Source of the DNA: Rugalucina vietnamica
Lineage: Eukaryota; Mollusca; Bivalvia; Lucinida; Lucinidae
DNA length: 64,000 nucleotides
NCBI GenBank assembly: GCA_964017185.1
Contig: OZ024870.1
Span: 66,712,312-66,776,311, forward strand
Direction: 5' to 3'
Shown: in pieces, positions 5,170 to 46,374 of the stretch
How the letters are laid out: the number at the start of each line of letters is the position of its first letter
How positions within the stretch are numbered: position 1 is the first letter of the stretch
Made by a program: the position numbers and the translations under genes
The notes under the pieces: model-generated
What the model was told of the DNA's origin: nothing
The model's input: the letters and a program-made list of their open reading frames with translations, nothing else
Database searches by the model: none

Positions 5170-8100
5170 CGTCAAGTTAGTTGTCGGTTGTCGGTTGACG
5201 GTTGACTATTCAAAAAACTAAGTTATTTTTGGTCAACTTTGCACTTAGCTTTTTTCTGCCACTATTCGATCTTAGTTTTTTTTGTGTCAAAATCAAAGTT
5301 TTTTCTATGTTGGAAAAAAATCGAACTTAGTTTTTCGAATAGTCAACCGACAACTAGTTGTCAGTTGACTATTCGGACTTAGTTTTTTTGGGTCAAAATC
5401 AAAGTTTTTTCTATGTTGGAAAAAAATCGAACTTAGTTTTTCGAATAGTCAACCGGCAACTAGTTGTCAGTTGACTATTCGGACTTAGTTTTTTTGGGTC
5501 AAAATCAAAGTTATTTCTATGTTGGAAAAAAATCGAACTTAGTTTTTCGAATAGTCAACCGACAACTAGTTGTCAGTTGACTATTCGGACTTAGTTTTTT
5601 TTTGGGTCAAAATCAAAGTTTTTTCTATGTTGGAAAAAAATCGAACTTCGTTTTTCGAATAGTCAACCGACAACTAGTTGTCAGTTGACTATTCGGACTT
5701 AGTTTTTTTTGGGTCAAAATCAAAGTTTTTTCTATGTTGGAAAAAAATCGAACTTAGTTTTTCGAATAGTCAACCGACAACTAGTTGTCAGTTGACTATT
5801 CGGACTTAATTTTTTTTGGGTCAAAATCAAAGTTTTTTCTATGTTGGAAAAAAATCGAACTTAGTTTTTCGAATAGTCAACCGACAACTAGTTGTCAGTT
5901 GACTATCCGGACTTAGTTTTTTTTGGGTCAAAATCAAAGTTTTTTCTATGTTGGAAAAAAATCGAACTTCGTTTTTCGAATAGTCAACCGACAACTAGTT
6001 GTCAGTTGACTATTCGGACTTAGTTTTGTTGGGTCAAAATCAAAGTTTTTTCTATGTTGGAAAAAATCGAACTTAGTTTTTCGAATAGTCAACCGACAAC
6101 TAGTTGTCAGTTGACTATTCGGACTTAGTTTTTTTGGGTCAAAATCAAAGTTTTTTCTATGTTGGAAAAAAAATCGAACTTAGTTTTTCGAATAGTTGGA
6201 AAAAAATCGAACTTAGTTTTTCGAATAGTCAACCGACAACTAGTTGTCAGTTGACTATTCGGACTTAGTTTTTTTGGGTCAAAATCAAAGTTTTTCTATG
6301 TTGGAAAAAAATCGAACTTAGTTTTTCGAATAGTCAACCGACAACTAGTTGTCAGTTGACTATTCGGACTTAGTTTTTTTGGGTCAAAATCAAAGTTTTT
6401 CTATGTTGGAAAAAAATCGAACTTAGTTTTCGAATAGTCAACCGACAACTAGTTGTCAGTTGACTATTCGGACTTAGTTTTTTTGGGTCAAAATCAAAGT
6501 CTCTATCGAGTATGTTGGAAAAAAAATCGAACTTAGTTTTTCGAATAGTCAACCCAACTGGGTCAAAATCAAAGTTTTTTCTATGTTGGAAAAAAATCGA
6601 ACTTAGTTTTTCGAATAGTCAACCGACAACTAGTTGTCAGTTGACTATTCGGACTTAGTTTTGTTGGGTCAAAATCAAAGTTTTTTCTATGTTGGAAAAA
6701 AATCGAACTTAGTTTTTCGAATAGTCAACCGACAACTAGTTGTCAGTTGACTATTCGGACTTAGTTTTTTTGGGTCAAAATCAAAGTTTTTTCTATGTTG
6801 GAAAAAAAATCGAACTTAGTTTTTCGAATAGTCAACCGACAACTAGTTGTCAGTTGACTATTCGGACTTAGTTTTTTTGGGTCAAAATCAAAGTTTTTTC
6901 TATGTTGGAAAAAAATCGAACTTAGTTTTTCGAATAGTCAACCGACAACTAGTTGTCAGTTGACTATTCGGACTTAGTTTTGTTGGGTCAAAATCAAAGT
7001 TTTTTCTATGTTGGAAAAAATCGAACTTAGTTTTTCGAATAGTCAACCGACAACTAGTTGTCAGTTGACTATTCGGACTTAGTTTTTTTGGGTCAAAATC
7101 AAAGTTTTTTCTATGTTGGAAAAAAAATCGAACTTAGTTTTTCGAATAGTCAACCGACAACTAGTTGTCAGTTGACTATTCGGACTTAGTTTTTTTGGGT
7201 CAAAATCAAAGTTTTTTCTATGTTGGAAAAAAATCGAACTTAGTTTTTCGAATAGTCAACCGACAACTAGTTGTCAGTTGACTATTCGGACTTAGATTTT
7301 TGGGGTCAAAATCAAAGTTTTTTCTATGTTGGAAAAAAATTGAACTTAGTTTTTCGAATAGTCAACCGACAACTAGTTGTCAGTTGACTATTCGGACTTA
7401 GTTTTGTTGGGTCAAAATCAAAGTTTTTTCTATGTTGGAAAAAAATCGAACTTAGTTTTTCGAATAGTCAACCGACAACTAGTTGTCAGTTGACTATTCG
7501 GACTTAGTTTTTTTGGGTCAAAATCAAAGTTTTTTCTATGTTGGAAAAAAATTGAACTTAGTTTTTCGAATAGTCAACCGACAACTAGTTGTCAGTTGAC
7601 TATTCGGACTTAGTTTTGTTGGGTCAAAATCAAAGTTTTTTCTATGTTGGAAAAAAATCGAACTTAGTTTTTCGAATAGTCAACCGACAACTAGTTGTCA
7701 GTTGACTATTCGGGCATAGTTTTTTTGGGTCAAAATCAAAGTTTTTTCTATGTTGGAAAAAAATTGAACTTAGTTTTTCGAATAGTCAACCGACAACTAG
7801 TTGTCAGTTGACTATTCGGACATAGTTTTTTGGGTCAAAATCAAAGTTTTTTCTATGTTGGAAAAAAATCGAACTTAGTTTTTCGAATAGTCAACCGACA
7901 ACTAGTTGTCAGTTGACTATTCGGACTTAGTTTTTTTGGGTCAAAATCAAAGTTTTTTCTATGTTGGAAAAAAATCAAACTTAGTTTTTCGAATAGTCAA
8001 CCGACAACTAGTTGTCAGTTGACTATTCGGACTTAGTTTTTTTGGGTCAAAATCAAAGTTTTTTCTAGTCAGTTGACTATTCGGACTTAGTGTTTTTTGG

Positions 8101-11100
8101 TCAAAATCAAAGTTTTTTCTATGTTGGAAAAAAATCGAACTTAGTTTTTCGAATAGTCAACCGACAACTAGTTGTCAGTTGACTATTCGGACTTAGTTTT
8201 TTTGGGTCAAAATCAAAGTTTTTTCTATGTTGGAAAAAAATCGAACTTAGTTTTTCGAATAGTCAACCGACAACTAGTTGTCAGTTGACTATTCGGACTT
8301 AGTTTTTTTGGGTCAAAATCAAAGTTTTTTCTATGTTGGAAAAAAATCGAACTTAGTTTTTCGAATAGTCAACCGACAACTAGTTGTCAGTTGACTATTC
8401 GGACTTAGTTTTTTTGGGTCAAAATCAAAGTTTTTTCTAGTCAGTTGACTATTCGGACTTAATGTTTTTTGGTCAAAATCAAAGTTTTTTCTATGTTGGA
8501 AAAAATCGAACTTAGTTTTTCGAATAGTCAACCGACAAGTAGTTGTCGGTTGACTATTCTGATTTAGTTTTTTTGGGTCAAAATCAAAGTTTTTTCTATG
8601 TTGGAAAAAAAATCGAACTTAGTTTTTCGAATAGTCAACCGACAACTAGTTGTCTGTTGACTATTCGGACTTAGTTTTTTTGGGTCAAAATCAAAGTTTT
8701 TTCTATGTTGGAAAAAAATTGAACTTAGTTTTTCGAATAGTCAACCGACAACTAGTTGTCAGTTGACTATTCGGACTTAGTTTTGTTGGGTCAAAATCAA
8801 AGTTTTTTCTATGTTGGAAAAAAATCGAACTTAGTTTTTCGAATAGTCAACCGGCAACTAGTTGTCAGTTGACTATTCGGACTTAGTTTTTTTGGGTCAA
8901 AATCAAAGTTTTTTCTATGTTGGAAAAAAATCGAACTTAGTTTTTCGAATAGTCAACCGACAACTAGTTGTCAGTTGACTATTCGGACTTAGTTTTTTTT
9001 GGGTCAAAATCAAAGTTTTTTCTATGTTGGAAAAAAATCGAACTTCGTTTTTCGAATAGTCAACCGACAACTAGTTGTCAGTTGACTATTCGGACTTAGT
9101 TTTTTTGGGTCAAAATCAAAGTTTTTTCTATGTTGGAAAAAAATCGAACTTAGTTTTTCGAATAGTCAACCGACAACTAGTTGTCAGTTGACTATTCGGA
9201 CTTAGTTTTTTTTTGGGTCAAAATCAAAGTTTTTTCTATGTTGGAAAAAAATCGAACTTAGTTTTTCGAATAGTCAACCGACAACTAGTTGTCAGTTGAC
9301 TATTCGGACTTAGTTTTGTTGGGTCAAAATCAAAGTTTTTTCTATGTTGGAAAAAATCGAACTTAGTTTTTCGAATAGTCAACCGACAACTAGTTGTCAG
9401 TTGACTATTCGGACTTAGTTTTTTTGGGTCAAAATCAAAGTTTTTTCTATGTTGGAAAAAAATCGAACTTAGTTTTTCGAATAGTCAACCGACAACTAGT
9501 TGTCAGTTGACTATTCGGACTTAGTTTTTTGGGGTCAAAATCAAAGTTTTTTCTATGTTGGAAAAAAATTGAACTTAGTTTTTCGAATAGTCAACCGACA
9601 ACTAGTTGTCAGTTGACTATTCGGACTTAGTTTTGTTGGGTCAAAATCAAAGTTTTTTCTATGTTGGAAAAAAATTGAACTTAGTTTTTCGAATAGTCAA
9701 CCGGCAACTAGTTGTCAGTTGACTATTCGGACTTAGTTTTTTTGGGTCAAAATCAAAGTTTTTTCTATGTTGGAAAAAAATCGAACTTAGTTTTTCGAAT
9801 AGTCAACCGACAACTAGTTGTCAGTTGACTATTCGGACTTAGTTATTTTTGGGTCAAAATCAAAGTTTTTTCTATGTTGGAAAAAAATCGAACTTAGTTT
9901 TTCGAATAGTCAACCGACAACTAGTTGTCAGTTGACTATTCGGACTTAGTTTTGTTGGGTCAAAATCAAAGTTTTTTCTATGTTGGAAAAAAATCGAACT
10001 TAGTTTTTCGAATAGTCAACCGACAACTAGTTGTCAGTTGACTATTCGGACTTAGTTTTTTTGGGTCAAAATCAAAGTTTTTTCTATGTTGGAAAAAAAT
10101 TGAACTTAGTTTTTCGAATAGTCAACCGACAACTAGTTGTCAGTTGACTATTCGGACTTAGTTTTGTTGGGTCAAAATCAAAGTTTTTTCTATGTTGGAA
10201 AAAAATTGAACTTAGTTTTTCGAATAGTCAACCGGCAACTAGTTGTCAGTTGACTATTCGGACTTAGTTTTTTTGGGTCAAAATCAAAGTTTTTTCTATG
10301 TTGGAAAAAAATCGAACTTAGTTTTTCGAATAGTCAACCGACAACTAGTTGTCAGTTGACTATTCGGACTTAGTTTTTTTTGGGTCAAAATCAAAGTTTT
10401 TTCTATGTTGGAAAAAAATCGAACTTAGTTTTTCAAATAGTCAACCGACAACTAGTTGTCAGTTGACTATTCGGACTTAGATTTTTTGGGTCAAAATCAA
10501 AGTTTTTTCTATGTTGGAAAAAAATCGAACTTAGTTTTTCGAATAGTCAACCGACAACTAGTTGTCAGTTGACTATTCGGACTTAGTTTTTTTTGGGTCA
10601 AAATCAAAGTTTTTTCTATGTTGGAAAAAAATTGAACTTAGTTTTTCGAATAGTCAACCGACAACTAGTTGTCAGTTGACTATTCGGACTTAGTTTTTTT
10701 TGGGTCAAAATCAAAGTTTTTTCTATGTTGGAAAAAAATCGAACTTCGTTTTTCGAATAGTCAACCGACAACTAGTTGTCAGTTGACTATTCGGACTTAG
10801 TTTTTTTGGGTCAAAATCAAAGTTTTTTCTATGTTGGAAAAAAATCGAACTTAGTTTTTCGAATAGTCAACCGACAACTAGTTGTCAGTTGACTATTCGG
10901 ACTTAGTTTTTTTTGGGTCAAAATCAAAGTTTTTTCTATGTTGGAAAAAAATCGAACTTAGTTTTTCGAATAGTCAACCGACAACTAGTTGTCAGTTGAC
11001 TATTCGGACTTAGTTTTTTTGGGTCAAAATCAAAGTTTTTTCTAGTCAGTTGACTATTCGGACTTAATGTTTTTTGGTCAAAATCAAAGTTTTTTCTATG

Positions 11101-14100
11101 TTGGAAAAAATCGAACTTAGTTTTTCGAATAGTCAACCGACAACTAGTTGTCAGTTGACTATTCGGACTTAGTTTTTTTTGGGTCAAAATCAAAGTTTTT
11201 TCTATGTTGGAAAAAAATCGAACTTAGTTTTTCGAATAGTCAACCGACAACTAGTTGTCGGTTGACTATTCGGATTTAGTTTTTTTGGGTCAAAATCAAA
11301 GTTTTTTCTATGTTGGAAAAAAAATCGAACTTAGTTTTTCGAATAGTCAACCGGCAACTAGTTGTCAGTTGACTATTCGGACTTAGTTTTTTTGGGTCAA
11401 AATCAAAGTTTTTTCTATGTTGGAAAAAAATCGAACTTAGTTTTTCGAATAGTCAACCGACAACTAGTTGTCAGTTGACTATTCGGACTTAGTTTTTTTT
11501 GGGTCAAAATCAAAGTTTTTTCTATGTTGGAAAAAAATTGAACTTAGTTTTTCGAATAGTCAACCGACAACTAGTTGTCGGTTGACTATTCGGACTTAGT
11601 TTTTTTGGGTCAAAATCAAAGTTTTTTCTATGTTGGAAAAAAATCGAACTTAGTTTTTCAAATAGTCAACCGACAACTAGTTGTCAGTTGACTATTCGGA
11701 CTTAGATTTTTTGGGTCAAAATCAAAGTTTTTTCTATGTTGGAAAAAAATCGAACTTAGTTTTTCGAATAGTCAACCGACAACTAGTTGTCAGTTGACTA
11801 TTCGGACTTAGTTTTTTTTGGGTCAAAATCAAAGTTTTTTCTATGTTGGAAAAAAATTGAACTTAGTTTTTCGAATAGTCAACCGACAACTAGTTGTCAG
11901 TTGACTATTCGGACTTAGTTTTTTTTGGGTCAAAATCAAAGTTTTTTCTATGTTGGAAAAAAATCGAACTTCGTTTTTCGAATAGTCAACCGACAACTAG
12001 TTGTCAGTTGACTATTCGGACTTATTTTTTTTTGGGTCAAAATCAAAGTTTTTTCTATGTTGGAAAAAAATCGAACTTAGTTTTTCGAATAGTCAACCGA
12101 CAACTAGTTGTCAGTTGACTATTCGGACTTAGTTTTTTTTGGGTCAAAATCAAAGTTTTTTCTATGTTGGAAAAAAATTGAACTTAGTTTTTCGAATAGT
12201 CAACCGACAACTAGTTGTCAGTTGACTATTCGGACTTAGTTTTTTTGGGTCAAAATCAAAGTTTTTTCTAGTCAGTTGACTATTCGGACTTAATGTTTTT
12301 TGGTCAAAATCAAAGTTTTTTCTATGTTGGAAAAAATCGAACTTAGTTTTTCGAATAGTCAACCGACAACTAGTTGTCAGTTGACTATTCGGACTTAGTT
12401 TTTTTTGGGTCAAAATCAAAGTTTTTTCTATGTTGGAAAAAAATCGAACTTAGTTTTTCGAATAGTCAACCGACAACTAGTTGTCGGTTGACTATTCGGA
12501 TTTAGTTTTTTTGGGTCAAAATCAAAGTTTTTTCTATGTTGGAAAAAAAATCGAACTTAGTTTTTCGAATAGTCAACCGACAACTAGTTGTCAGTTGACT
12601 ATTCGGACTTAGTTTTTTTGGGTCAAAATCAAAGTTTTTTCTATGTTGGAAAAAAATCGAACTTAGTTTTTCGAATAGTCAACCGACAACTAGTTGTCAG
12701 TTGACTATTCGGACTTAGTTTTTTTGGGTCAAAATCAAAGTTTTTTCTATGTTGGAAAAAAATTGAACTTAGTTTTTCGAATAGTCAACCGACAACTAGT
12801 TGTCAGTTGACTATTCGGACTTAGTTTTGTTGGGTCAAAATCAAAGTTTTTTCTATGTTGGAAAAAAATCGAACTTAGTTTTTCGAATAGTCAACCGGCA
12901 ACTAGTTGTCAGTTGACTATTCGGACTTAGTTTTTTTGGGTCAAAATCAAAGTTTTTTCTATGTTGGAAAAAAATCGAACTTAGTTTTTCGAATAGTCAA
13001 CCGACAACTAGTTGTCAGTTGACTATTCGGACTTAGTTTTTTTTGGGTCAAAATCAAAGTTTTTTCTATGTTGGAAAAAAATTGAACTTAGTTTTTCGAA
13101 TAGTCAACCGACAACTAGTTGTCGGTTGACTATTCGGACTTAGTTTTTTTGGGTCAAAATCAAAGTTTTTTCTATGTTGGAAAAAAATTGAACTTAGTTT
13201 TTCGAATAGTCAACCGACAACTAGTTGTCAGTTGACTATTCGGACTTAGTTTTGTTGGGTCAAAATCAAAGTTTTTTCTATGTTGGAAAAAAATCGAACT
13301 TAGTTTTTCGAATAGTCAACCGACAACTAGTTGTCAGTTGACTATTCGGGCATAGTTTTTTTGGGTCAAAATCAAAGTTTTTTCTATGTTGGAAAAAAAT
13401 CGAACTTCGTTTTTCGAATAGTCAACCGACAACTAGTTGTCAGTTGACTATTCGGACTTAGTTTTTTTGGGTCAAAATCAAAGTTTTTTCTATGTTGGAA
13501 AAAAATCGAACTTAGTTTTTCGAATAGTCAACCGACAACTAGTTGTCAGTTGACTATTCGGACTTAGTTTTTTTTGGGTCAAAATCAAAGTTTTTTCTAT
13601 GTTGGAAAAAAATCGAACTTAGTTTTTCGAATAGTCAACCGACAACTAGTTGTCAGTTGACTATTCGGACTTAGTTTTTTTGGGTCAAAATCAAAGTTTT
13701 TTCTAGTCAGTTGACTATTCGGACTTAATGTTTTTTGGTCAAAATCAAAGTTTTTTCTATGTTGGAAAAAATCGAACTTAGTTTTTCGAATAGTCAACCG
13801 ACAACTAGTTGTCAGTTGACTATTCGGACTTAGTTTTTTTTGGGTCAAAATCAAAGTTTTTTCTATGTTGGAAAAAAATCGAACTTAGTTTTTCGAATAG
13901 TCAACCGACAACTAGTTGTCGGTTGACTATTCGGATTTAGTTTTTTTGGGTCAAAATCAAAGTTTTTTCTATGTTGGAAAAAAAATCGAACTTAGTTTTT
14001 CGAATAGTCAACCGACAACTAGTTGTCAGTTGACTATTCGGACTTAGTTTTTTTGGGTCAAAATCAAAGTTTTTTCTATGTTGGAAAAAAATCGAACTTA

Positions 14101-17100
14101 GTTTTTCGAATAGTCAACCGACAACTAGTTGTCAGTTGACTATTCGGACTTAGTTTTTTTGGGTCAAAATCAAAGTTTTTTCTATGTTGGAAAAAAATTG
14201 AACTTAGTTTTTCGAATAGTCAACCGACAACTAGTTGTCAGTTGACTATTCGGACTTAGTTTTGTTGGGTCAAAATCAAAGTTTTTTCTATGTTGGAAAA
14301 AAATCGAACTTAGTTTTTCGAATAGTCAACCGGCAACTAGTTGTCAGTTGACTATTCGGACTTAGTTTTTTTGGGTCAAAATCAAAGTTTTTTCTATGTT
14401 GGAAAAAAATCGAACTTAGTTTTTCGAATAGTCAACCGACAACTAGTTGTCAGTTGACTATTCGGACTTAGTTTTTTTTGGGTCAAAATCAAAGTTTTTT
14501 CTATGTTGGAAAAAAATTGAACTTAGTTTTTCGAATAGTCAACCGACAACTAGTTGTCGGTTGACTATTCGGACTTAGTTTTTTTGGGTCAAAATCAAAG
14601 TTTTTTCTATGTTGGAAAAAAATTGAACTTAGTTTTTCGAATAGTCAACCGACAACTAGTTGTCAGTTGACTATTCGGACTTAGTTTTGTTGGGTCAAAA
14701 TCAAAGTTTTTTCTATGTTGGAAAAAAATCGAACTTAGTTTTTCGAATAGTCAACCGACAACTAGTTGTCAGTTGACTATTCGGGCATAGTTTTTTTGGG
14801 TCAAAATCAAAGTTTTTTCTATGTTGGAAAAAAATTGAACTTAGTTTTTCGAATAGTCAACCGACAACTAGTTGTCAGTTGACTATTCGGACTTAGTTTT
14901 TTTGGGTCAAAATCAAAGTTTTTTCTATGTTGGAAAAAAATCGAACTTAGTTTTTCGAATAGTCAACCGACAACTAGTTGTCAGTTGACTATTCGGACTT
15001 AGTTTTTTTGGGTCAAAATCAAAGTTTTTTCTATGTTGGAAAAAAATCGAACTTAGTTTTTCGAATAGTCAACCGACAACTAGTTGTCGGTTGACTATTC
15101 GGACTTAGTTTTTTTGGGTCAAAATCAAAGTTTTTTCTAGTCAGTTGACTATTCGGACTTAGTGTTTTTTGGTCAAAATCAAAGTTTTTTCTATGTTGGA
15201 AAAAAATCGAACTTAGTTTTTCGAATAGTCAACCGACAACTAGTTGTCAGTTGACTATTCGGACTTAGTTTTTTTGGGTCAAAATCAAAGTTTTTTCTAT
15301 GTTGGAAAAAAATCGAACTTAGTTTTTCGAATAGTCAACCGACAACTAGTTGTCAGTTGACTATTCGGACTTAGTTTTTTTGGGTCAAAATCAAAGTTTT
15401 TTCTATGTTGGAAAAAAATCGAACTTAGTTTTTCGAATAGTCAACCGACAACTAGTTGTCAGTTGACTATTCGGACTTAGTTTTTTTGGGTCAAAATCAA
15501 AGTTTTTTCTAGTCAGTTGACTATTCGGACTTAATGTTTTTTGGTCAAAATCAAAGTTTTTTCTATGTTGGAAAAAATCGAACTTAGTTTTTCGAATAGT
15601 CAACCGACAACTAGTTGTCAGTTGACTATTCGGACTTAGTTTTTTTGGGTCAAAATCAAAGTTTTTTCTATGTTGGAAAAAAATCGAACTTAGTTTTTCG
15701 AATAGTCAACCGACAACTAGTTGTCAGTTGACTATTCGGACTTAGTTTTTTTGGGTCAAAATCAAAGTTTTTTCTATGTTGGAAAAAAATCGAACTTAGT
15801 TTTTCGAATAGTCAACCGACAACTAGTTGTCAGTTGACTATTCGGACTTAGTTTTTTTTGGGTCAAAATCAAAGTTTTTTCTATGTTGGAAAAAAATCGA
15901 ACTTAGTTTTTCGAATAGTCAACCGACAACTAGTTGTCAGTTGACTATTCGGACTTAGTTTTGTTGGGTCAAAATCAAAGTTTTTTCTATGTTGGAAAAA
16001 ATCGAACTTAGTTTTTCGAATATTCAACCGACAACTAGTTGTCAGTTGACTATTCGGTCTTAGTTTTTTTGGGTCAAAATCAAAGTTTTTTCTATGTTGG
16101 AAAAAAATCGAACTTAGTTTTTCAAATAGTCAACCGACAACTAGTTGTCAGTTGACTATTCGGACTTAGATTTTTTGGGTCAAAATCAAAGTTTTTTCTA
16201 TGTTGGAAAAAAATCGAACTTAGTTTTTCGAATAGTCAACCGACAACTAGTTGTCAGTTGACTATTCGGACTTAGTTTTTTTTGGGTCAAAATCAAAGTT
16301 TTTTCTATGTTGGAAAAAAATTGAACTTAGTTTTTCGAATAGTCAACCGACAACTAGTTGTCAGTTGACTATTCGGACTTAGTTTTTTTTGGGTCAAAAT
16401 CAAAGTTTTTTCTATGTTGGAAAAAAATCGAACTTAGTTTTTCGAATAGTCAACCGACAACTAGTTGTCAGTTGACTATTCGGACTTAGTTTTTTTTGGG
16501 TCAAAATCAAAGTTTTTTCTATGTTGGAAAAAAATCGAACTTAGTTTTTCGAATAGTCAACCGACAACTAGTTGTCAGTTGACTATTCGGACTTAGTTTT
16601 TTTGGGTCAAAATCAAAGTTTTTTCTAGTCAGTTGACTATTCGGACTTAATGTTTTTTGGTCAAAATCAAAGTTTTTTCTATGTTGGAAAAAATCGAACT
16701 TAGTTTTTCGAATAGTCAACCGACAACTAGTTGTCAGTTGACTATTCGGACTTAGTTTTTTTTGGGTCAAAATCAAAGTTTTTTCTATGTTGGAAAAAAA
16801 TCGAACTTAGTTTTTCGAATAGTCAACCGACAACTAGTTGTCGGTTGACTATTCGGATTTAGTTTTTTTGGGTCAAAATCAAAGTTTTTTCTATGTTGGA
16901 AAAAAAATCGAACTTAGTTTTTCGAATAGTCAACCGACAACTAGTTGTCAGTTGACTATTCGGACTTAGTTTTTTTGGGTCAAAATCAAAGTTTTTTCTA
17001 TGTTGGAAAAAAATCGAACTTAGTTTTTCGAATAGTCAACCGGCAACTAGTTGTCAGTTGACTATTCGGACTTAGTTTTTTTGGGTCAAAATCAAAGTTT

Positions 17101-28471: not shown

Positions 28472-28644
28472 AAGACAGCATGAGACAAGATTTCTTAGAA
28501 CTTCTTAACAATCATTTGCAACCAACTGAATGCAATTAATGTCACTTCAGATGACCCCGAAGAAAACTGTACAGTCTTCCATAAAACTACTCTAGGGCAT
28601 CCATCTCGCAGATATCAAGACTGGTTTGATGAGAATGATGACAA

Positions 28645-28815
28645 AATTCAGATGCTTCTTGAAGAAGGGCACCAGTCACAAGGCACATCAAGATGATACC
28701 AGCTCAGATGCTTCTTGAAGAAGGGTACCAGTCACAAGGCACATCAAGATGATACTAGCTCAGTTGCTTCTTGAAGAGGGGTACCAGCCACATCAAGATG
28801 ATACTAGCTCAGTTG
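28645..28815 (+). repeat. Three tandem copies of a roughly 65-bp segment within the LINE linker
   Basis: CAGATGCTTCTTGAAGAAGG followed by the text around CACATCAAGATGATAC recurs three times with small changes. It is a local duplication inside the relic and adds to its loss of frame. Confidence 0.85.
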
Positions 28816-32660: not shown

Positions 32661-32664
32661 TAGG

Positions 32665-34794: not shown

Positions 34795-35170
34795 CATACC
34801 ATGAAACATATCGTAAGCCGAATGAGCAGCTATTTTCTCAATAGGTGGCCACTCAGTTACCTTAACTTAACTAAAAATATGAAAACATACATAAGGCGCC
34901 AAAAGCACAAAAAAAATTTATACACCAAGACATAAAACAAAAAGAACCACCACAGAAGTATCGATTTGGAAGTTACTGGCGGGCTTAAACCGGTTTTACA
35001 TGGCCATAACCTCACCCTCAGCTTCTGCAGTGGTTCATAACATTTAGTTAGTTATTCGGTCCTTATGGTGAATCTCTAACTAGTCAATGAATCATCAAGA
35101 ACAAACAAATAAATCATGATAAACATCCTGATGAATAAAAAACCAGGACTCACAGACTGAGTAAGCTGCT
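34795..35170 (+). mobile_element. Dispersed element, copy B
   Basis: It reads AACATATCGTAAGCCGAATG through AATCTCTAACTAGTCAATGA. It is the same element as copy A (inverted) and copy C (same strand), here without the long C-run and without the internal insertion seen in C. It ends near GACTCACAGACTGAGTAAG. Confidence 0.8.
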
Positions 35171-36034
35171 CGACGATGGAGATCCCTGGGCGCCGAAACT
35201 AGCTACATATAAGAAGAAAAAGTTAAAATCTTAAAGATCTCGTATTATAAAATTAGTTCACAGTATATAATTGCATCAAATGTAACATATGTAACAGACT
35301 GAAAGGGTACACAGAGACAACTTATGAATTAACGAAGATCAATGATTATTGATTTTAAACCATGCTGTTATACTAATATGATGTTAAACAGAAAAATGTA
35401 ATGAAATATTTAAATTGTTTAAGTCTGTCCAATTGGTAACTTAATATGTAAAAGGGTACAATGTATGTGTATTGGGCTTCATTAAAACTTGTTGTAATGA
35501 TATAAATTGCTTATAATAAGCATACAGGAAACATCCTACATTCATAATTCATTCATTTAAGTACTTTGAAATTATTAGTGAACAAGTTTATATTTTGAAA
35601 AATAAACGTTATGTGTAATAAATGTAACAAACAACCATTATTCAGGCCCACGATTTTTATGAAATTTCATAAATATATTTTTGACAAATATGGGCAGTTT
35701 TTATATTGAAATGGTTTGTTGACAAAGTCAGGAACACAGAAAAAATTTAATTCGAATTCTGCCACTTTTAAAATAAGCATGTGAAGATTGGGGTTACATG
35801 TATATACAAATGACTTCTCCGCCGCTGTCTTGATACTAACAAAGTCATTTATAGTATCTGCAAACTAACCAATGACTACCTAAATTCTAGACAGATTTCA
35901 ACATTTGCTCTATGAAACGTTGGTCATTATAGAAATGTTTAAAGTTATATACCCTCAGCCGTGTTAGTGACATCATTATGCCGTAAGAGTTATCTGGCAA
36001 TAATTGAATAACATGCCGTTGGTCAGTGCTTACT
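35171..36034. other. AT-rich non-coding stretch
   Basis: No gene or repeat family recognised; the ORF at 35887-36177 minus overlaps dispersed-element copy D and is not a gene. Confidence 0.6.
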
Positions 36035-36217
36035 GGAAAAGGTAAAAGTAGGCAACGATTAGGAAAAGGCGCAATCAGAAAGCAAGTCCCACCCCAAAAA
36101 CCCGAGGTGGGAAAAATAAATTGAAACTCTGTTAGTTTAAAAACATATAGTAAGCCGAGTAAGCGGCTATTTCCCACTATGCGGCCACTCAGTTACCTGA
36201 ACTTCATTTCAGTTGGT
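36035..36217 (+). mobile_element. Dispersed element, truncated copy D
   Basis: It contains GGTAAAAGTAGGCAACGATT, CCCGAGGTGGGAAAAA, AGTAAGCCGAGTAAGCGGC and GGCCACTCAGTTACCTGAAC, matching the first half of copy C, and is cut off about 10 bp before array 2. Its half-element orientation relative to array 2 is the same as that of copy A relative to array 1. Confidence 0.78.
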
Positions 36218-36227
36218 TGGAGCTTCC

Positions 36228-36522
36228 TGTCTGATTTTTCCAACATAGAAAAACTTTGATTTTTACCCCAAAAAACTAAGTTCGAATAGTGGCAGAAAAA
36301 AGCTAAGTGCGAATTTGACAAAAAAAAAAACTAAGTTCGAATAGTCAACCGACAACTGGTTGACGGTTGACTATTCAAAAAACTAAGTTCGATTTTTTCA
36401 ACAAAGAAAAATTCAAAGTTCGAATAGTCAACCGTCAACTAAATGACAGTTGACTATTCAAAAAACTAAGTTTGATTTTTCCAACATAGAAAAAACTTTG
36501 ATTCTGACCCCCCCCCCCCCCC

Positions 36523-36563
<41 letters not shown>

Positions 36564-39500
36564 GTTCTAAAATTTAAGTTCATATAGCGCATTTGACCAA
36601 AAAAACTAAATTCGAACAGTCAACGATTCAAAAAACTAAGTTCGAAAAAAACTTTGATTTTGACACAAAAAAACTAAGTTCGAATAGTCAACTGTCAACT
36701 GGTTGACGGTTGACTATTCAAAAAAATAAGTTAGATTTTTCCAACATAGAAAAAACTTTGATTTTGACCCAAAAAAACTAAGTCCGAATAGTCAACTGTC
36801 AACTAGTTGTCGGATGACTATTCGAAAAACTAAGTTCGATTTTTCCAACATAGAAAAAACTTTGATTTTGACCCAAAAAAACTAAGTCCGAATAGTCAAC
36901 TGTCAACTAGTTGTCGGTTGACTATTCGAAAAACTAAGTTCGATTTTTTTCCAACATAGAAAAAACTTTGAATGTGACCCAAAAAAACTAAGTCCGAATA
37001 GTCAACTGTCAACTAGTTGTCGGTTGACTATTCGAAAAACTAAGTTCGATTTTTTTCCAACATAGAAAAAACTTTGATTTTGACCCAAAAACCTAAGTCC
37101 GAATAGTCAACTGTCAACTAGTTGTCGGTTGACTATTCGAAAAACTAAGTTCGATTTTTTTCCAACATAGAAAAAACTTTGATTTTGACCCAAAAAAAAC
37201 TAAGTCCGAATAGTCAACTGACAACTAGTTGTCGATTGACTATTCGAAAAACTAAGTTCGATTTTTTTCCAACATAGAAAAAACTTTGATTTTGACCCAA
37301 AAAAACTAAGTCCGAATAGTCAACTGACAACTAGTTGTCGGTTGACTATTCGAAAAACTAAGTTCGATTTTTTTCCAACATAGAAAAAACTTTGATTTTG
37401 ACCCAAAAAAACTAAGTCCGAATAGTCAACCGACAACTAGTTGTCGGTTGACTATTCGAAAAACTAAGTTCGATTTTTTTCCAACATAGAAAAAACTTTG
37501 ATTTTGACCAAAAAAAAAACTAAGTCCGAATAGTCAACTGACAACTAGTTGTCGGTTGACTATTCGAAAAACTAAGTTCGATTTTTTTCCAACATAGAAA
37601 AAACTTTGATTTTGACCCAAAAAAACTAAGTCCGAATAGTCAACTGACAACTAGTTGTCGGTTGACTATTCGAAAAACTAAGTTCGATTTTTTTCCAACA
37701 TAGAAAAAACTTTGATTTTGACCCAAAAAAACTAAGTCCGAATAGTCAACTGACAACTAGTTGTCGGTTGACTATTCGAAAAACTAAGTTCGACTATTCG
37801 AAAAACTAAGTTCGATTTTTTTCCAACATAGAAAAAACTTTGATTTTGACCCAAAAAAAAACTAAGTCCGAATAGTCAACTGACAACTAGTTGTCGGTTG
37901 ACTATTCGAAAAACTAAGTTCGATTTTTTTCCAACATAGAAAAAACTTTGATTTTGACCCAAAAAAACTAAGTCCGAATAGTCAACGGACAACTAGTTGT
38001 CGGTTGACTATTCGAAAAACTAAGTTCGATTTTTTTCCAACATAGAAAAAACTTTGATTTTGACCCAAAAAAAACTAAGTCCGAATAGTCAACTGACAAC
38101 TAGTTGTCGGTTGACTATTCGAAAAACTAAGTTCGATTTTTTTCCAACATAGAAAAAACTTTGATTTTGACCCAAAAAAACTAAGTCCGAATAGTCAACT
38201 GACAACTAGTTGTCGGTTGACTATTCGAAAAACTAAGTTCGATTTTTTTCCAACATAGAAAAAACTTTGATTTTGACCCAAAAAAACTAAGTCCGAATAG
38301 TCAACAGTTGTCGGTTGACTATTCGAAAAACTAAGTTCGATTTTTTTCCAACATAGAAAAAACTTTGATTTTAACCCAAAAAAACTAAGTCCGAATAGTC
38401 AACTGACAACTAGTTGTCGGTTGACTATTCGAAAAACTAAGTTCGATTTTTTTCCAACATAGAAAAAACTTTGATTTTGACCCAAAAAAAACTAAGTCCG
38501 AATAGTCAACTGACAACTAGTTGTCGGTTGACTATTCGAAAAACTAAGTTCGATTTTTTTCCAACATAGAAAAAACTTTGATTTTGACCCAAAAAAACTA
38601 AGTCCGAATAGTCAACTGACAACTTGTTGTCGGTTGACTATTCGAAAAACTAAGTTCGATTTTTTTCCAACATAGAAAAAACTTTGATTTTGACCAAAAA
38701 AAAAACTAAGTCCGAATAGTCAACTGACAACTAGTTGTCGGTTGACTATTCGAAAAACTAAGTTCGATTTTTTTCCAACATAGAAAAAACTTTGATTTTG
38801 ACCAAAAAAAACTAAGTCCGAATAGTCAACTGACTAGAAAAAACTTTGATTTTGACCCAAAAAAACTAAGTCCGAATAGTCAACTGACAACTAGTTGTCG
38901 GTTGACTATTCGAAAAACTAAGTTCGATTTTTTTCCAACATAGAAAAAAGTTTGATTTTGACCCAAAAAAACTAAGTCCGAATACTCAACTGACAACTAG
39001 TTGTCGGTTGACTATTCGAAAAACTAAGTTCGATTTTTTTCCAACATAGAAAAAACTCTGATTTTGACCCAAAAAAAAACTAAGTCCGAATAGTCAACTG
39101 ACAACTAGTTGTCGGTTGACTATTCGAAAAACTAAGTTCGATTTTTTTCCAACATAGAAAAAACTTTGATTTTGACCCAAAAAAACTAAGTCCGAATAGT
39201 CAACTGACAACTAGTTGTCGGTTGACTATTCGAAAAACTAAGTTCGATTTTTTTCCAACATAGAAATAACTTTGATTTTGACCCAAAAAAACTAAGTCCG
39301 AATAGTCAACTGACAACTAGTTGTCGGTTGACTATTCGAAAAACTAAGTTCGATTTTTTTCCAACATAGAAAAAACTTTGATTTGACCCAAAACAACTAA
39401 GTCCGAATAGTCAACTGACAACTAGTTGTCGGTTGACTATTCGAAAAACTAAGTTCGATTTTTTTTCCAACATAGAAAAACTTTTATTTTGACCCAAAAA

Positions 39501-42500
39501 AAACTAAGTCCGAATAGTCAACTGACAACTAGTTGTTGGTTGACTATTCGAAAAACTAAGTTCGATTTTTTTCCAACATAGAAAAAAACTTTGATTTTGA
39601 CCAAAAAAAACTAAGTCCGAATAGTCAACTGACTAGAAAAAACTTTGATTTTGACCCAAAAAAACTAAGTCCGAATAGTCAACTGACAACTAGTTGTCGG
39701 TTGACTATTCGAAAAACTAAGTTCGATTTTTTTCCAACATAGAAAAAACTTTGATTTTGACCCAAAAAAACTAAGTCCGAATAGTCAACTGACAACTAGT
39801 TGCCGGTTGACTATTCGAAAAACTAAGTTCAATTTTTTTCCAACATAGAAAAAACTTTGATTTTGACCCAACTAAGTCCGAATAGTCAACTGACAACTAG
39901 TTGTCGGTTGACTATTCGAAAAACTAAGTTCGATTTTTTTCCAACATAGAAAAAACTTTGATTTTGACCCAAAAAAAACTAAGTCCGAATAGTCAACTGA
40001 CAACTAGTTGTCGGTTGACTATTCGAAAAACTAAGTTCGATTTTTTCCAACATAGAAAAAACTTTGATTTTGACCCAAAAAAACTAAGTCCGAATAGTCA
40101 ACCGACAACTAGTTGTCGGTTGACTATTCGAAAAACTAAGTTCGATTTTTTCCAACATAGAAAAAACTTTGATTTTGACCCAACAAAACTAAGTCCGAAT
40201 AGTCAACTGACAACTAGTTGTCGGTTGACTATTCGAAAAACTAAGTTCGATTTTTTTCCAACATAGAAAAAACTTTGATTTTGACCCAAAAAAACTAAGT
40301 CCGAATAGTCAAAAAACTAAGTTCGAAAAAAACTTTGATTTTGACACAAAAAAACTAAGTTCGAATAGTCAACTGTCAACTGGTTGACGGTTGACTATTC
40401 AAAAAAATAAGTTAGATTTTTCCAACATAGAAAAAACTTTGATTTTGATCCAAAAAAACTAAGTCCGAATAGTCAACTGTCAACTAGTTGTCGGATGACT
40501 ATTCGAAAAACTAAGTTCGATTTTTCCAACATAGAAAAAACTTTGATTTTGACCCAAAAAAACTAAGTCCGAATAGTCAACTGTCAACTAGTTGTCGGTT
40601 GACTATTCGAAAAACTAAGTTCGATTTTTTTCCAACATAGAAAAAACTTTGAATGTGACCCAAAAAAACTAAGTCCGAATAGTCAACTGTCAACTAGTTG
40701 TCGGTTGACTATTCGAAAAACTAAGTTCGATTTTTTTCCAACATAGAAAAAACTTTGATTTTGACCCAAAAACCTAAGTCCGAATAGTCAACTGTCAACT
40801 AGTTGTCGGTTGACTATTCGAAAAACTAAGTTCGATTTTTTTCCAACATAGAAAAAACTTTGATTTTGACCCAAAAAAAACTAAGTCCGAATAGTCAACT
40901 GACAACTAGTTGTCGATTGACTATTCGAAAAACTAAGTTCGATTTTTTTCCAACATAGAAAAAACTTTGAATGTGACCCAAAAAAACTAAGTCCGAATAG
41001 TCAACTGTCAACTAGTTGTCGGTTGACTATTCGAAAAACTAAGTTCGATTTTTTTCCAACATAGAAAAAACTTTGATTTTGACCCAAAAACCTAAGTCCG
41101 AATAGTCAACTGTCAACTAGTTGTCGGTTGACTATTCGAAAAACTAAGTTCGATTTTTTTCCAACATAGAAAAAACTTTGATTTTGACCCAAAAAAAACT
41201 AAGTCCGAATAGTCAACTGACAACTAGTTGTCGATTGACTATTCGAAAAACTAAGTTCGATTTTTTTCCAACATAGAAAAAACTTTGATTTTGACCCAAA
41301 AAAACTAAGTCCGAATAGTCAACTGACAACTAGTTGTCGGTTGACTATTCGAAAAACTAAGTTCGATTTTTTTCCAACATAGAAAAAACTTTGATTTTGA
41401 CCCAAAAAAACTAAGTCCGAATAGTCAACTGACAACTAGTTGTCGGTTGACTATTCGAAAAACTAAGTTCGATTTTTTTCCAACATAGAAAAAACTTTGA
41501 TTTTGACCAAAAAAAAAACTAAGTCCGAATAGTCAACTGACAACTAGTTGTCGGTTGACTATTCGAAAAACTAAGTTCGATTTTTTTCCAACATAGAAAA
41601 AACTTTGATTTTGACCCAAAAAAACTAAGTCCGAATAGTCAACTGACAACTAGTTGTCGGTTGACTATTCGAAAAACTAAGTTCGACTATTCGAAAAACT
41701 AAGTTCGATTTTTTTCCAACATAGAAAAAACTTTGATTTTGACCCAAAAAAAAACTAAGTCCGAATAGTCAACTGACAACTAGTTGTCGGTTGACTATTC
41801 GAAAAACTAAGTTCGATTTTTTTCCAACATAGAAAAAACTTTGATTTTGACCCAAAAAAACTAAGTCCGAATAGTCAACGGACAACTAGTTGTCGGTTGA
41901 CTATTCGAAAAACTAAGTTCGATTTTTTTCCAACATAGAAAAAACTTTGATTTTGACCCAAAAAAAACTAAGTCCGAATAGTCAACTGACAACTAGTTGT
42001 CGGTTGACTATTCGAAAAACTAAGTTCGATTTTTTTCCAACATAGAAAAAACTTTGATTTTGACCCAAAAAAACTAAGTCCGAATAGTCAACTGACAACT
42101 AGTTGTCGGTTGACTATTCGAAAAACTAAGTTCGATTTTTTTCCAACATAGAAAAAACTTTGATTTTGACCCAAAAAAACTAAGTCCGAATAGTCAACAG
42201 TTGTCGGTTGACTATTCGAAAAACTAAGTTCGATTTTTTTCCAACATAGAAAAAACTTTGATTTTAACCCAAAAAAACTAAGTCCGAATAGTCAACTGAC
42301 AACTAGTTGTCGGTTGACTATTCGAAAAACTAAGTTCGATTTTTTTCCAACATAGAAAAAACTTTGATTTTGACCCCAAAAAAACTAAGTCCGAATAGTC
42401 AACTGACAACTAGTTGTCGGTTGACTATTCGAAAAACTAAGTTCGATTTTTTTCCAACATAGAAAAAACTTTGATTTTGACCCAAAAAAACTAAGTCCGA

Positions 42501-45500
42501 ATAGTCAACTGACAACTAGTTGTCGGTTGACTATTCGAAAAACTAAGTTCGATTTTTTTCCAACATAGAAAAAACTTTGATTTTGACCAAAAAAAAAACT
42601 AAGTCCGAATAGTCAACTGACAACTAGTTGTCGGTTGACTATTCGAAAAACTAAGTTCGATTTTTTTCCAACATAGAAAAAACTTTGATTTTGACCAAAA
42701 AAAACTAAGTCCGAATAGTCAACTGACTAGAAAAAACTTTGATTTTGACCCAAAAAAACTAAGTCCGAATAGTCAACTGACAACTAGTTGTCGGTTGACT
42801 ATTCGAAAAACTAAGTTCGATTTTTTTCCAACATAGAAAAAAGTTTGATTTTGACCCAAAAAAACTAAGTCCGAATACTCAACTGACAACTAGTTGTCGG
42901 TTGACTATTCGAAAAACTAAGTTCGATTTTTTTCCAACATAGAAAAAACTCTGATTTTGACCCAAAAAAAAACTAAGTCCGAATAGTCAACTGACAACTA
43001 GTTGTCGGTTGACTATTCGAAAAACTAAGTTCGATTTTTTTCCAACATAGAAAAAACTTTGATTTTGACCCAAAAAAACTAAGTCCGAATAGTCAACTGA
43101 CAACTAGTTGTCGGTTGACTATTCTAAAAACTAAGTTCGATTTTTTTCCAACATAGAAATAACTTTGATTTTGACCCAAAAAAACTAAGTCCGAATAGTC
43201 AACTGACAACTAGTTGTCGGTTGACTATTCGAAAAACTAAGTTCGATTTTTTTCCAACATAGAAAAAACTTTGATTTGACCCAAAACAACTAAGTCCGAA
43301 TAGTCAACCGACAACTAGTTGTCGGTTGACTATTCGAAAAACTAAGTTCGATTTTTTTTCCAACATAGAAAAAACTTTTATTTTGACCCAAAAAAAACTA
43401 AGTCCGAATAGTCAACTGACAACTAGTTGTTGGTTGACTATTCGAAAAACTAAGTTCGATTTTTTTCCAACATAGAAAAAAACTTTGATTTTGACCAAAA
43501 AAAACTAAGTCCGAATAGTCAACTGACTAGAAAAAACTTTGATTTTGACCCAAAAAAACTAAGTCCGAATAGTCAACTGACAACTAGTTGTCGGTTGACT
43601 ATTCGAAAAACTAAGTTCGATTTTTTTCCAACATAGAAAAAACTTTGATTTTGACCCAAAAAAACTAAGTCCGAATAGTCAACTGACAACTAGTTGCCGG
43701 TTGACTATTCGAAAAACTAAGTTCAATTTTTTTCCAACATAGAAAAAACTTTGATTTTGACCCAACAAAACTAAGTCCGAATAGTCAACTGACAACTAGT
43801 TGTCGGTTGACTATTCGAAAAACTAAGTTCAATTTTTTTCCAACATAGAAAAAACTTTGATTTTGACCCAAAAAAACTAAGTCCGAATAGTCAACTGACA
43901 ACTAGTTGTCGGTTGACTATTCGAAAAACTAAGTTCGATTTTTTTCCAACATAGAAAAAACTTTGATTTTGACCCAAAAAAACTAAGTCCGAATAGTCAA
44001 CTGACAACAAGTTGTCGGTTGACTATTCGAAAAACTAAGTTCGATTTTTTTCCAACATAGAAAAAACTTTGATTTTGACCCAAAAAAAACTAAGTCCGAA
44101 TAGTCAACTGACAACTAGTTGTCGGTTGACTATTCGAAAAACTAAGTTCGATTTTTTTCCAACATAGAAAAAACTTTGATTTTGACCCAAAAAAACTAAG
44201 TCCGAATAGTCAACCGACAACTAGTTGTCGGTTGACTATTCGAAAAACTAAGTTCGATTTTTTCCAACATAGAAAAAACTTTGATTTTGACCCAACAAAA
44301 CTAAGTCCGAATAGTCAACTGACAACTAGTTGTCGGTTGACTATTCGAAAAACTAAGTTCGATTTTTTTCCAACATAGAAAAAACTTTGATTTTGACCCA
44401 AAAATAACTAAGTCCGAATAGTCAACTGACAACTAGTTGTCGGTTGACTATTCGAAAAACTAAGTTCGATTTTTTTCCAACATAGAAAAAACTTTGATTT
44501 TGACCCAAAAAAACTAAGTCCGAATAGTCAACTGACAACTAGTTGCCGGTTGACTATTCGAAAAACTAAGTTCAATTTTTTTCCAACATAGAAAAAACTT
44601 TGATTTTGACCCAACAAAACTAAGTCCGAATAGTCAACTGACAACTAGTTGTCGGTTGACTATTCGAAAAACTAAGTTCAATTTTTTTCCAACATAGAAA
44701 AAACTTTGATTTTGACCCAAAAAAACTAAGTCCGAATAGTCAACTGACAACTAGTTGTCGGTTGACTATTCGAAAAACTAAGTTCGATTTTTTTCCAACA
44801 TAGAAAAAACTTTGATTTTGACCCAAAAAAACTAAGTCCGAATAGTCAACCGACAACTAGTTGTCGGTTGACTATTCGAAAAACTAAGTTCGATTTTTTT
44901 CCAACATAGAAAAAACTTTGATTTTGACCCAAAAAAACTAAGTCCGAATAGTCAACTGACAACTAGTTGTCGGTTGACTATTCGAAAAACTAAGTTCGAT
45001 TTTTTTCCAACATAGAAAAAACTTTGATTTTGACCCAAAAAAACTAAGTCCGAATAGTCAACTGACAACTAGTTGTCGGTTGACTATTCGAAAAACTAAG
45101 TTCGATTTTTTTCCAACATAGAAAAAACTTTGATTTGACCCAAAAAAACTAAGTCCGAATAGTCAACTGACAACTAGTTGTCGGTTGACTATTCGAAAAA
45201 CTAAGTTCGATTTTTTTCCAACATAGAAAAAACTTTGATTTTGACCCAAAAAAAACTAAGTCCGAATAGTCAACTGACAACTAGTTGTCGGTTGACTATT
45301 CGAAAAACTAAGTTCGATTTTTTTCCAACATAGAAAAAACTTTGATTTTGACCCAAAAAAAACTAAGTCCGAATACTCAACTGACAACTAGTTGTCGGTT
45401 GACTATTCGAAAAACTAAGTTCGATTTTTTTCCAACATAGAAAAAACTTTGATTTTGACCCAAAAAAAACTAAGTCCGAATAGTCAACTGACAACTAGTT

Positions 45501-46374
45501 GTCGGTTGACTATTCGAAAAACTAAGTTCGATTTTTTTCCAACATAGAAAAAACTTTGATTTTGACCCAAAAAAACTAAGTCCGAATAGTCAACCGACAA
45601 CTAGTTGTCGGTTGACTATTCGAAAAACTAAGTTCGATTTTTTTCCAACATAGAAAAAACTTTGATTTGACCCAAAACAACTAAGTCCGAATAGTCAACT
45701 GACAACTAGTTGTCGGTTGACTATTCGAAAAACTAAGTTCGATTTTTTTTCCAACATAGAAAAAACTTTTATTTTGACCCAAAAAAAACTAAGTCCGAAT
45801 AGTCAACTGACAACTAGTTGTTGGTTGACTATTCGAAAAACTAAGTTCGATTTTTTTCCAACATAGAAAAAAACTTTGATTTTGACCAAAAAAAACTAAG
45901 TCCGAATAGTCAACTGACTAGAAAAAACTTTGATTTTGACCCAAAAAAACTAAGTCCGAATAGTCAACTGACAACTAGTTGTCGGTTGACTATTCGAAAA
46001 ACTAAGTTCGATTTTTTTCCAACATAGAAAAAACTTTGATTTTGACCCAAAAAAACTAAGTCCGAATAGTCAACTGACAACTAGTTGTCGGTTGACTATT
46101 CGAAAAACTAAGTTCGATTTTTTTCCAACATAGAAAAAACTTTGATTTTGACCCAAAAAAACTAAGTCCGAATAGTCAACTGACAACTAGTTGTCGGTTG
46201 ACTATTCGAAAAACTAAGTTCGATTTTTTTCCAACATAGAAAAAACTTTGATTTTGACACAAAAAAAACTAAGATCGAATAGTGGCAGAAAAAAGCTAAG
46301 TGCAAAGTTGACCAAAAATAACTTAGTTTTTTGAATAGTCAACCGTCAACCGACAACCGACAACTAACTTGACG
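36228..46374 (-). repeat. Satellite array 2: about 95 monomers, inverted relative to array 1
   Basis: The same roughly 106-bp monomer as array 1, reverse-complemented (ACATAGAAAAAACTTTGATT, TTGACCCAAAAAAACTAAG, TCCGAATAGTCAAC, ACAACTAGTTGTC, GGTTGACTATTCGAAAAAC). The left, inner edge is divergent over 36228-36700 and contains the cap module at 36281-36319, a stray C-run/A-run block near 36507-36560, and monomers with CAACTGGTTG. The right, outer edge ends sharply at 46374 with the cap at 46273-46313. No genes; ORFs inside are repeat artefacts. Confidence 0.98.
36661..44300 (-). repeat. Higher-order duplication of about 3.7-3.9 kb inside array 2
   Basis: The TTGACACAAAAAAAC variant at 36661 recurs at 40342, and the AATGTGACCC variant at 36971 recurs at 40652, both offset 3681. 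It then appears again 318 bp on (three monomers) at 40970. Downstream markers (a truncated monomer at 38301/42194, a doubled GACTATTCG at 37791/41684, a deletion at 38828/42721) are offset 3893, that is 3681 plus two monomers. The right-hand limit of the duplicate is approximate. Confidence 0.9.

What the first reader, a model, noticed from the sequence alone, without database searches (positions are those of the whole stretch)
5170..46374. Two satellite arrays arranged as a giant inverted repeat with identical outer ends
Seen directly: the sequence from 5170 inward, reverse-complemented, matches the sequence from 46374 inward without a difference over at least 230 bases, including a roughly 100-bp non-repetitive cap. 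Array 1 is 19.6 kb, array 2 is 10.1 kb, the spacer 11.5 kb. In both arrays the outer edge is sharp and the inner edge is divergent, so the mirror symmetry extends to edge quality. Known family: foldback transposons of Drosophila and sea urchin have terminal inverted repeats made of short tandem units, usually under a few kb. Inference: this may be a foldback-like element, or a transposition of one, at about 41 kb scale. The 11.5-kb interior contains no recognised transposase, so it would be non-autonomous.
Basis: partly seen in the sequence, partly recalled or inferred. Interest (0 to 1): 0.88.

Follow-up and report, generated by a model that had tools for sequence, protein, structure and literature searches.

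The report
Giant satellite-armed foldback transposon family
The window holds one copy of a family of jumping DNA elements, many of them tens of thousands of bases long, whose two mirror-image arms are long arrays of a short repeat; it suggests that long repeat arrays can be carried around a genome between transposon ends.

Summary
Confirmed and extended. Window 5165-46374 is a 41.2-kb inverted-repeat element: two arrays of a 106-bp satellite (about 19.4 and 10 kb) in opposite orientation round an 11.5-kb interior; the first 286 bases of the arms are identical. In the same 1.09-Gb genome the terminus ACGAACGTCAAGTTAGTTGTCGG (up to 2 mismatches) occurs 82 times, reversed control 0. With three degraded ends these form 35 inward-facing pairs of 72 bp to 61 kb, 25 of at least 20 kb. 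Exact 9-bp target duplications flank 28 of 32 pairs tested; 0 of 992 mismatched partners agree. A 26-kb copy has an empty-site paralogue. In a search scoring 40 of 514 candidates, every near-identical copy of one interior piece lies behind these ends. So this is a dispersed foldback-type DNA transposon family, far larger than those I found described. The window copy lacks its last 5 bp and a target duplication, so it is probably immobile. No transposase was found in the interiors examined; a Mutator-like enzyme in trans is inferred. A 72-bp copy shows satellites are not required. One interior is a 99.6% palindrome. Size at insertion is unsettled.

The parts
5165..46374 (.). Whole element E1 (41,210 bp), G000:C2:66717476-66758685
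   Evidence: Termini by comparison with 5 other complete copies and pattern searches
5165..5262 (+). Left cap: ACGAACGTCAAG, then heptads GTTGTCG GTTGTCG GTTGACG GTTGACT, then a variant satellite unit
   Evidence: 100% identical over 106 bp at 34 termini listed, this one included (40 of 264 candidates scored); heptad counts
5261..24560 (+). Left arm: array of a 106-bp satellite; each unit holds a 38-bp near-palindrome GAATAGTCAACCGACAACTAGTTGTCAGTTGACTATTC
   Evidence: TRF, unit identity profile, palindrome 36 of 38, hairpin fold of one unit z -3.8
24555..24763 (+). Inner edge of left arm with cap-like units
   Evidence: Sequence; similar inverted at 36233-36511
24764..36232 (.). Interior; 24722-27916 and 28469-33927 are shared with element E3 at about 99%; the 0.55 kb between them is absent from E3
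   Evidence: the piece 26040-26660 is shared with 7 other paired elements
24792..25090 (+). Inner inverted domain, partner 34804-35084, 74% identity
25034..25210 (+). Inner inverted domain, partner 36037-36197, 75% identity
29246..30129 (+). Broken reverse-transcriptase fragment (PF00078) in two ORFs, not a transposase
36233..46283 (-). Right arm: the same 106-bp satellite inverted, inner edge divergent
46276..46374 (-). Right cap, ending CTTGACG; the terminal TTCGT present in other copies is missing and no target duplication follows

Best explanation
E1 is a damaged copy of a family of non-autonomous foldback DNA transposons. Shown: a conserved terminus, in inverted orientation at both ends, defines units that were inserted with 9-bp target duplications. 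Shown: a unit may be little more than the two termini (72 bp) or may contain two inverted satellite arrays and an interior, up to 61 kb. Inferred: a transposase made elsewhere in the genome, most likely Mutator-like, binds the terminal 35-50 bp and cuts and pastes the unit. Inferred: the satellite arms grow from the terminal repeat by unequal crossing-over or slippage, so that their outer edge stays sharp (the cap is needed for transposition) and their inner edge decays. Inferred: template switching or repair between the arms duplicates one half onto the other, which gives palindromic interiors such as that of E3.
For: 82 termini with up to 2 mismatches, reversed-pattern control 0; 35 inward-facing pairs after adding three degraded ends; 9-bp duplication exact in 28 of 32 pairs against 0 of 992 mismatched partners, including 61.0-, 56.2- and 46.3-kb copies; empty-site paralogue for a 26-kb copy, 177 of 187 bp identical, and related empty sites for the 3.36-kb copy. 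Interior and ends travel together: the copies of window 26040-26660 at 97-100% lie in 8 paired elements (E1 included) or behind one unpaired terminus; the other hits are short, 73-87% identical (40 of 514 candidates scored). E4 and E6 share a 6-kb interior at 98.5% in opposite orientation. 72-bp and 111-bp copies consist of terminal sequence only and still have exact duplications. E3 palindrome: 8.46 kb per arm, 99.65%, 172-bp loop, about 1-bp overlap at the join read by eye against E1.
Against: E1 itself has no target duplication and lacks the last 5 bp on the right. 4 of 32 pairs have no exact duplication: 20.6 kb (7 of 9 differ), 39.8 kb (3 differ), 10.4 kb (2 differ), 688 bp (5 differ). 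14 termini have no partner found. No transposase gene was seen in the interiors examined, and no listed PF10551, PF20700 or PF12762 match lies in a pair, so the enzyme is unidentified. Shared 41-mers give a mixed picture for E1's arms: of the left arm's, 27% are in its own right arm but 30-32% in E3's arms; of the right arm's, 35% are in its own left arm and 21-24% in E3's.
Confidence: 0.8

Rival explanations
1. Growth in place: small elements (caps plus a few units, with or without the interior) inserted with target duplications, and the satellite arms expanded afterwards, so that no 20-61 kb unit ever moved.
For: Target duplications say nothing about size at insertion. Arm lengths differ between E1 and E3, which share an interior (19.4 and 10.0 kb against 7.8 and 10.3 kb), and arms share only part of their 41-mers. 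Small copies with the same caps exist.
Against: A piece of the interior is shared at 97-100% in 8 paired elements at different places, and E1 and E3 share about 8.6 kb, so units of at least several kb with both caps moved. E3's palindromic interior is bounded by a normal target duplication. No sizes were found between 10.4 and 20.0 kb, which gradual growth might be expected to fill.
Confidence: 0.35
2. Composite of two independent small foldback elements that flank and mobilise host DNA, as described for the Ising TE of Drosophila.
For: The principle is in print (PMC6431247, passage). Interiors differ between subfamilies.
Against: A composite would carry four caps. The pattern searches show two caps per pair except a doubled right cap at C17:11.33M, an extra left cap at C12:42.00M and, in the shorter pattern, a doubled left cap at C7:30.80M. 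Inner edges of E1 have cap-like units but no ACGAACGT end.
Confidence: 0.08
3. Assembly artefact, or a plain inversion of a satellite array.
For: Long-read foldback artefacts are known (PMC12870357, search listing only); E4 contains 2500 N.
Against: 35 pairs of different size at different places, matching 9-bp duplications at 28 of 32 tested, and an empty site. An artefact would not duplicate 9 bp of flank.
Confidence: 0.03
4. The same kind of element, but the enzyme is not Mutator-like: it is Merlin-like (IS1595) or of an undescribed superfamily.
For: The genome holds IS1595-type transposase matches (56); Merlin target duplications are 8-9 bp (recalled).
Against: Described foldback elements with tandem-repeat arms and about 9-bp duplications are mostly filed under Mutator (PMC4079207, passages; PMC3169594, passages). 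Mutator-like genes are present too. Not decisive.
Confidence: 0.3

Closest known systems
Rehavkus (Rehavkus-1_TC, Tribolium)
   Same: 9-bp target duplications; a 164-bp satellite in inverted termini (PMC10218199 passages; PMC6446971 passages)
   Different: 9.5 kb with mostly five and eight monomers in the termini; the group has a transposase with a PHD finger and is reported from arthropods and annelids; here up to 61 kb, arms of 2.2-19.4 kb in the six giant copies measured, no transposase found
Tetris foldback element (Drosophila virilis)
   Same: Inverted arms with an outer flanking domain, tandem repeats and inner domain; middle of variable content; no conserved ORF; 8-10 bp duplications (PMC4079207, passages and section 10)
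   Different: Arms up to 1,735 bp; three structurally complete copies; here the left arm of E1 alone is about 19.4 kb
Tm1 Mutator/Foldback (Meloidogyne)
   Same: Composite inverted repeats with variable tandem units, mostly 9-bp duplications, short non-autonomous copies (PMC3169594 passages)
   Different: About 14-bp units, elements of about 1.1-2.6 kb in the passages seen, some encode a putative transposase, asymmetric 7-bp end motifs
Galileo (P superfamily, Drosophila)
   Same: Foldback-like arms with tandem repeats in one subfamily, inverted recruitment of inner sequence into the arms, tandem repeats proposed as secondary transposase-binding sites (PMC3573991 passages)
   Different: 7-bp flanking sequences, arms of 18-1,250 bp in D. 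mojavensis, P-type transposase

Membership tests
Foldback (FB-like) elements | Long terminal inverted repeats built of short tandem units, middle of variable content | tested here: met
   six giant copies read whole and the 3.36-kb copy. The 72- and 111-bp copies have no satellite arms
Foldback (FB-like) elements | Target duplication of about 9 bp | tested here: met
   28 of 32 pairs exact; control 0 of 992; not met at E1 itself
Mutator-like (MULE) superfamily | 8-11 bp target duplication | tested here: met
   range from PMC6446971 passage
Mutator-like (MULE) superfamily | MULE/Mutator transposase encoded by a copy with these ends | tested here: inconclusive
   PF10551: 0 of 121 matches at E<=10 in a pair. 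PF20700: 0 of 104 matches in or within 5 kb of a pair, 114 of 164 candidates scored. Interiors of 6 of 25 giants were read; introns could hide weak exons
Rehavkus | PHD-finger transposase | not tested
   No PHD search of the genome was run; none appeared in the 30 interior ORFs scanned
Rehavkus | 9-bp duplication and satellite near the inverted termini | tested here: met
Merlin (IS1595-like) | IS1595-type transposase between such ends | tested here: inconclusive
   0 of 56 PF12762 matches in or within 5 kb of a pair
Galileo / P superfamily | 7-bp flanking duplications | tested here: not met
   9 bp exact
Helitron/Helentron satellite carriers | No target duplication (recalled) | tested here: not met
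   9-bp duplications

The most novel reading that the evidence does not exclude
A transposon class in which one enzyme moves units over a nearly thousand-fold size range (72 bp to 61 kb) because it needs only about 35-50 bp of each end. Satellite arrays of tens of kb, and even a near-perfect palindrome of about 17 kb (two 8.46-kb arms), are transposed as cargo, so that the element is a dispersal vehicle that seeds long satellite arrays in new places, possibly by a replicative, hairpin-based route that also explains the palindromes.
Probability: 0.3. Interest if true: 0.85.

Novelty: new variant of a known kind. Interest (0 to 1): 0.72.

Why it matters
In the papers I saw, foldback and Rehavkus elements reach about 9.5 kb and arms stay below 2 kb. 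Here the same architecture runs to 61 kb, with E1's left arm about ten times longer than the longest Tetris arm. It offers concrete loci on which to test how long satellite arrays come to be scattered over chromosomes, how large inverted repeats are formed and tolerated, and what the size limit of cut-and-paste transposition in animals is. It also warns that dispersed satellite arrays in inverted pairs may be transposon arms and not inverted array fragments.

Tried and rejected
Transposase in E1: 20 interior ORFs scanned with Pfam; a broken reverse transcriptase in two ORFs, three matches below cut-off and nothing else; other short ORFs were not scanned. Ten interior ORFs of E2 and E4 gave nothing above cut-off. 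Interiors of E3, E6 and E14 were only looked at as ORFs of 100 aa or more. PF20700 genes as the partner: 3-3.5 kb on one side of two such genes (L059, L060) hold neither satellite 12-mers nor the cap; their other sides were not fetched. The 10.4-kb element as an autonomous copy: the 10 kb of it that were fetched hold a retrotransposon with endonuclease and reverse-transcriptase domains, no transposase domain in the four ORFs scanned. Rfam on the window at gathering scores: 0 matches. Literature: the searches listed no title or abstract of a foldback element of this size; only open-licence papers are searchable, so this is weak evidence of absence. The organism was not identified; the gene remnants look animal (my judgement).

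Limits: genome DNA searches score only the best 40 candidates, so copy numbers are lower bounds. More diverged ends than 2 mismatches would be missed by the pattern searches. The right flanks of the C16:33.29M and C13:39.58M pairs were not fetched, so their duplications are untested. For two pairs with an extra cap the duplication was read at the cap that fits (inner left cap at C12:42.00M, outer right cap at C17:11.33M). In the control one of 992 comparisons agreed at 8 of 9 bases and seven at 7 of 9, so the 7-of-9 agreement of the 10.4-kb pair is not evidence by itself.

Full report
OBSERVATION. The two arrays, their opposite orientation, the identical outer ends and the sharp-outer, ragged-inner edges are all in the sequence. 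The arms are identical for 286 bases from 5170 and 46374 inward. The 106-bp unit runs from 5261 to about 24560 and, inverted, from about 36270 to 46283. Most 300-bp pieces match the unit at 97-100%, some inside the arrays at 82-94%; the inner edge falls to 72-88% on the left and 80% on the right.

THE ENDS MARK A FAMILY. The window lies at G000:C2:66712312-66776311 of a 1.09-Gb genome in 47 contigs. A search with the outer 231 bp (40 of 496 candidates scored) gave hits many of which pair up facing inward at 22-56 kb on the same contig. Five such elements were fetched whole with flanks: E2 (C3:17.48M, 30.9 kb), E3 (C12:20.16M, 35.6 kb), E4 (C16:32.97M, 31.4 kb, with 2500 N), E6 (C5:51.39M, 26.0 kb) and E14 (C12:50.61M, 22.0 kb). 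All five end in ACGAACGTCAAG...CTTGACGTTCGT. Thus the left end of the window copy (E1) is 5165, and its right end, CTTGACG followed by AATGG, lacks the last five bases.

COUNTS. The pattern ACGAACGTCAAGTTAGTTGTCGG with up to 2 mismatches occurs 82 times (44 forward, 38 reverse); the reversed control pattern 0 times. 64 of the 82 form 32 inward-facing pairs within 70 kb. A shorter pattern adds the right end of E1 and a partner for C16:33291925; a further search adds a partner, lacking 9 terminal bases, for C13:39577905. That makes 35 pairs: 10 of 72 bp to 10.4 kb, none between 10.4 and 20.0 kb, and 25 of 20.0 to 61.0 kb. One further terminus is the outer cap of a doubled right end (C17:11.33M); for 14 termini no partner was found.

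TARGET DUPLICATIONS AND EMPTY SITES. Of the 32 pairs, 28 are flanked by an exact 9-bp direct repeat; 0 of 992 comparisons between ends of different elements agree. The four failures are 20.6 kb (7 of 9 differ), 39.8 kb (3 differ), 10.4 kb (2 differ) and 688 bp (5 differ). By subtraction, 20 of the 22 tested pairs of at least 20 kb are exact, or 20 of 23 if E1 is counted as a failure; the other two giants were not tested. The 26 exact duplications are 72% A+T without a strict consensus. For E6 a tandem paralogue about 800 bp upstream (L021:165-351) has the uninterrupted target with one copy of GTTTTAAGC, 177 of 187 bp identical, 32 bp on the left and the rest on the right of the junction. The 3.36-kb copy lies in a dispersed repeat of which copies in L053, L008 and L046 are uninterrupted at the same point.

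CARGO MOVES WITH THE ENDS. E1 and E3 share window 24722-27916 and 28469-33927 at about 99%. A 621-bp piece of this was searched in the genome: the copies at 97-100% lie in 8 paired elements (E1, E3 twice, E9 at C15:41.12M, C15:8.30M, C12:42.00M, C16:5.42M, C16:33.29M twice, C3:80.66M; two of them in pieces) or, in pieces, behind the unpaired terminus C8:11.75M; the remaining hits are of about 150 bp or less at 73-87% (40 of 514 candidates scored). E4 and E6 share 6 kb at 98.5%, in opposite orientations. So at least several kb moved together with both ends.

FOUR ODD FEATURES. First, E3's interior is a palindrome: 8.46 kb per arm, 99.65% identical, 172-bp loop. Its centre joins the equivalents of window 33752 and 33927 with about one shared base, as a template switch would (the overlap was read by eye against E1). 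C16:33.29M also holds two inverted copies of the searched piece. Second, some giants carry a second satellite as an inverted pair: a 169-bp unit in E2 (93-96%) and a 52-bp unit in E4 (92%); E6 has shorter inverted pairs (1.1 kb, 89-91%), E14 none. Third, the smallest copies, 72 and 111 bp, are hairpins made only of terminal sequence, yet have exact duplications; so the satellite is not required in cis, at least in those copies. Fourth, the cap is itself a short tandem array of heptads (GTTGTCG/GTTGACG, one to three copies; 39 of 58 distinct ends carry one pattern), and each satellite unit carries similar heptads in a near-palindrome. That would fit reiterated binding sites for the transposase, as proposed for Galileo (PMC3573991, passages). 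This last step is inference.

MECHANISM. The best reading is non-autonomous cut-and-paste transposition by an enzyme supplied in trans, with growth of the arms by unequal crossing-over and duplication of halves by template switching. Shown: ends, 9-bp duplications, empty sites, co-moving interior. Inferred: the enzyme, the cut-and-paste route, the growth, the switching. The enzyme is not identified. The genome has 59 PF10551, 104 PF20700 and 56 PF12762 matches at E<=0.001; none lies in a pair, nor do the 62 weaker PF10551 matches. Six of the 25 giant interiors were read.

LIMITS. Target duplications do not tell how long the arms were at insertion. Arm lengths and unit variants differ between E1 and E3 although their interiors are 99% alike, so later growth is possible and is listed as the main rival. 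Whether the two arms of one copy evolve together is mixed: clear for E3 (61-63% of 41-mers shared) and E6 (40-48%), unclear for E1 (27-35%, against 21-32% with E3's arms). E1 itself has neither an intact right end nor a duplication, so it may be a deleted or recombined copy. Long reads and other individuals could not be examined.

KNOWN KINDS. It works like a foldback element and meets the structural tests. The closest in print are Rehavkus-1_TC (9.5 kb, satellite in inverted termini), Tetris, Tm1 and Galileo (passages, and one whole section of Tetris). The arm lengths given in what I saw are up to 1.7 kb and the element lengths up to 9.5 kb. In the five library searches made on this point no foldback element of this size was listed. 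I therefore call it a new, very large variant of a known kind.

Noticed in passing
window 58659-59669: A second, diverged copy of E1's inner domains (74-83% pieces) lies 12 kb outside the element; no cap was found there by the pattern searches.
   Followed up: no
window 27917-28468: About 0.55 kb of E1's interior is absent from E3, so it was probably inserted in E1.
   Followed up: no
G000:C17:451668-461262: A Mutator (PF20700) gene is present as an inverted duplicate, its exons mirrored about a centre near 456 kb; a matching gene at C10:38.57M is listed once.
   Followed up: partly
G000:C4:68178757-68230326; C12:28967974-28994502; C2:67350015-67382641: Mutator (PF20700) genes in tandem arrays with periods of about 4.98, 4.23 and 4.6 kb.
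   Followed up: no
L059:1869-1935; L060:1702-1768: Much the same short hairpin (around CTGATCAGCGCCTTTG) occurs on the 3' side of two different Mutator genes; it may be a widespread palindromic repeat (by eye).
   Followed up: no
L028:1560-1800 (C17:11337076-11337321): The right end of an 8-kb element carries two complete caps 140 bp apart; the target duplication fits the outer one.
   Followed up: partly
window 48665-50290 (-) and 59688-60947 (+): Two reverse-transcriptase remnants (PF00078) outside the element.
   Followed up: no
window 32648-33962: A diverged direct repeat of about 450 bp inside the interior, also present in E6 at 73-76%.
   Followed up: no
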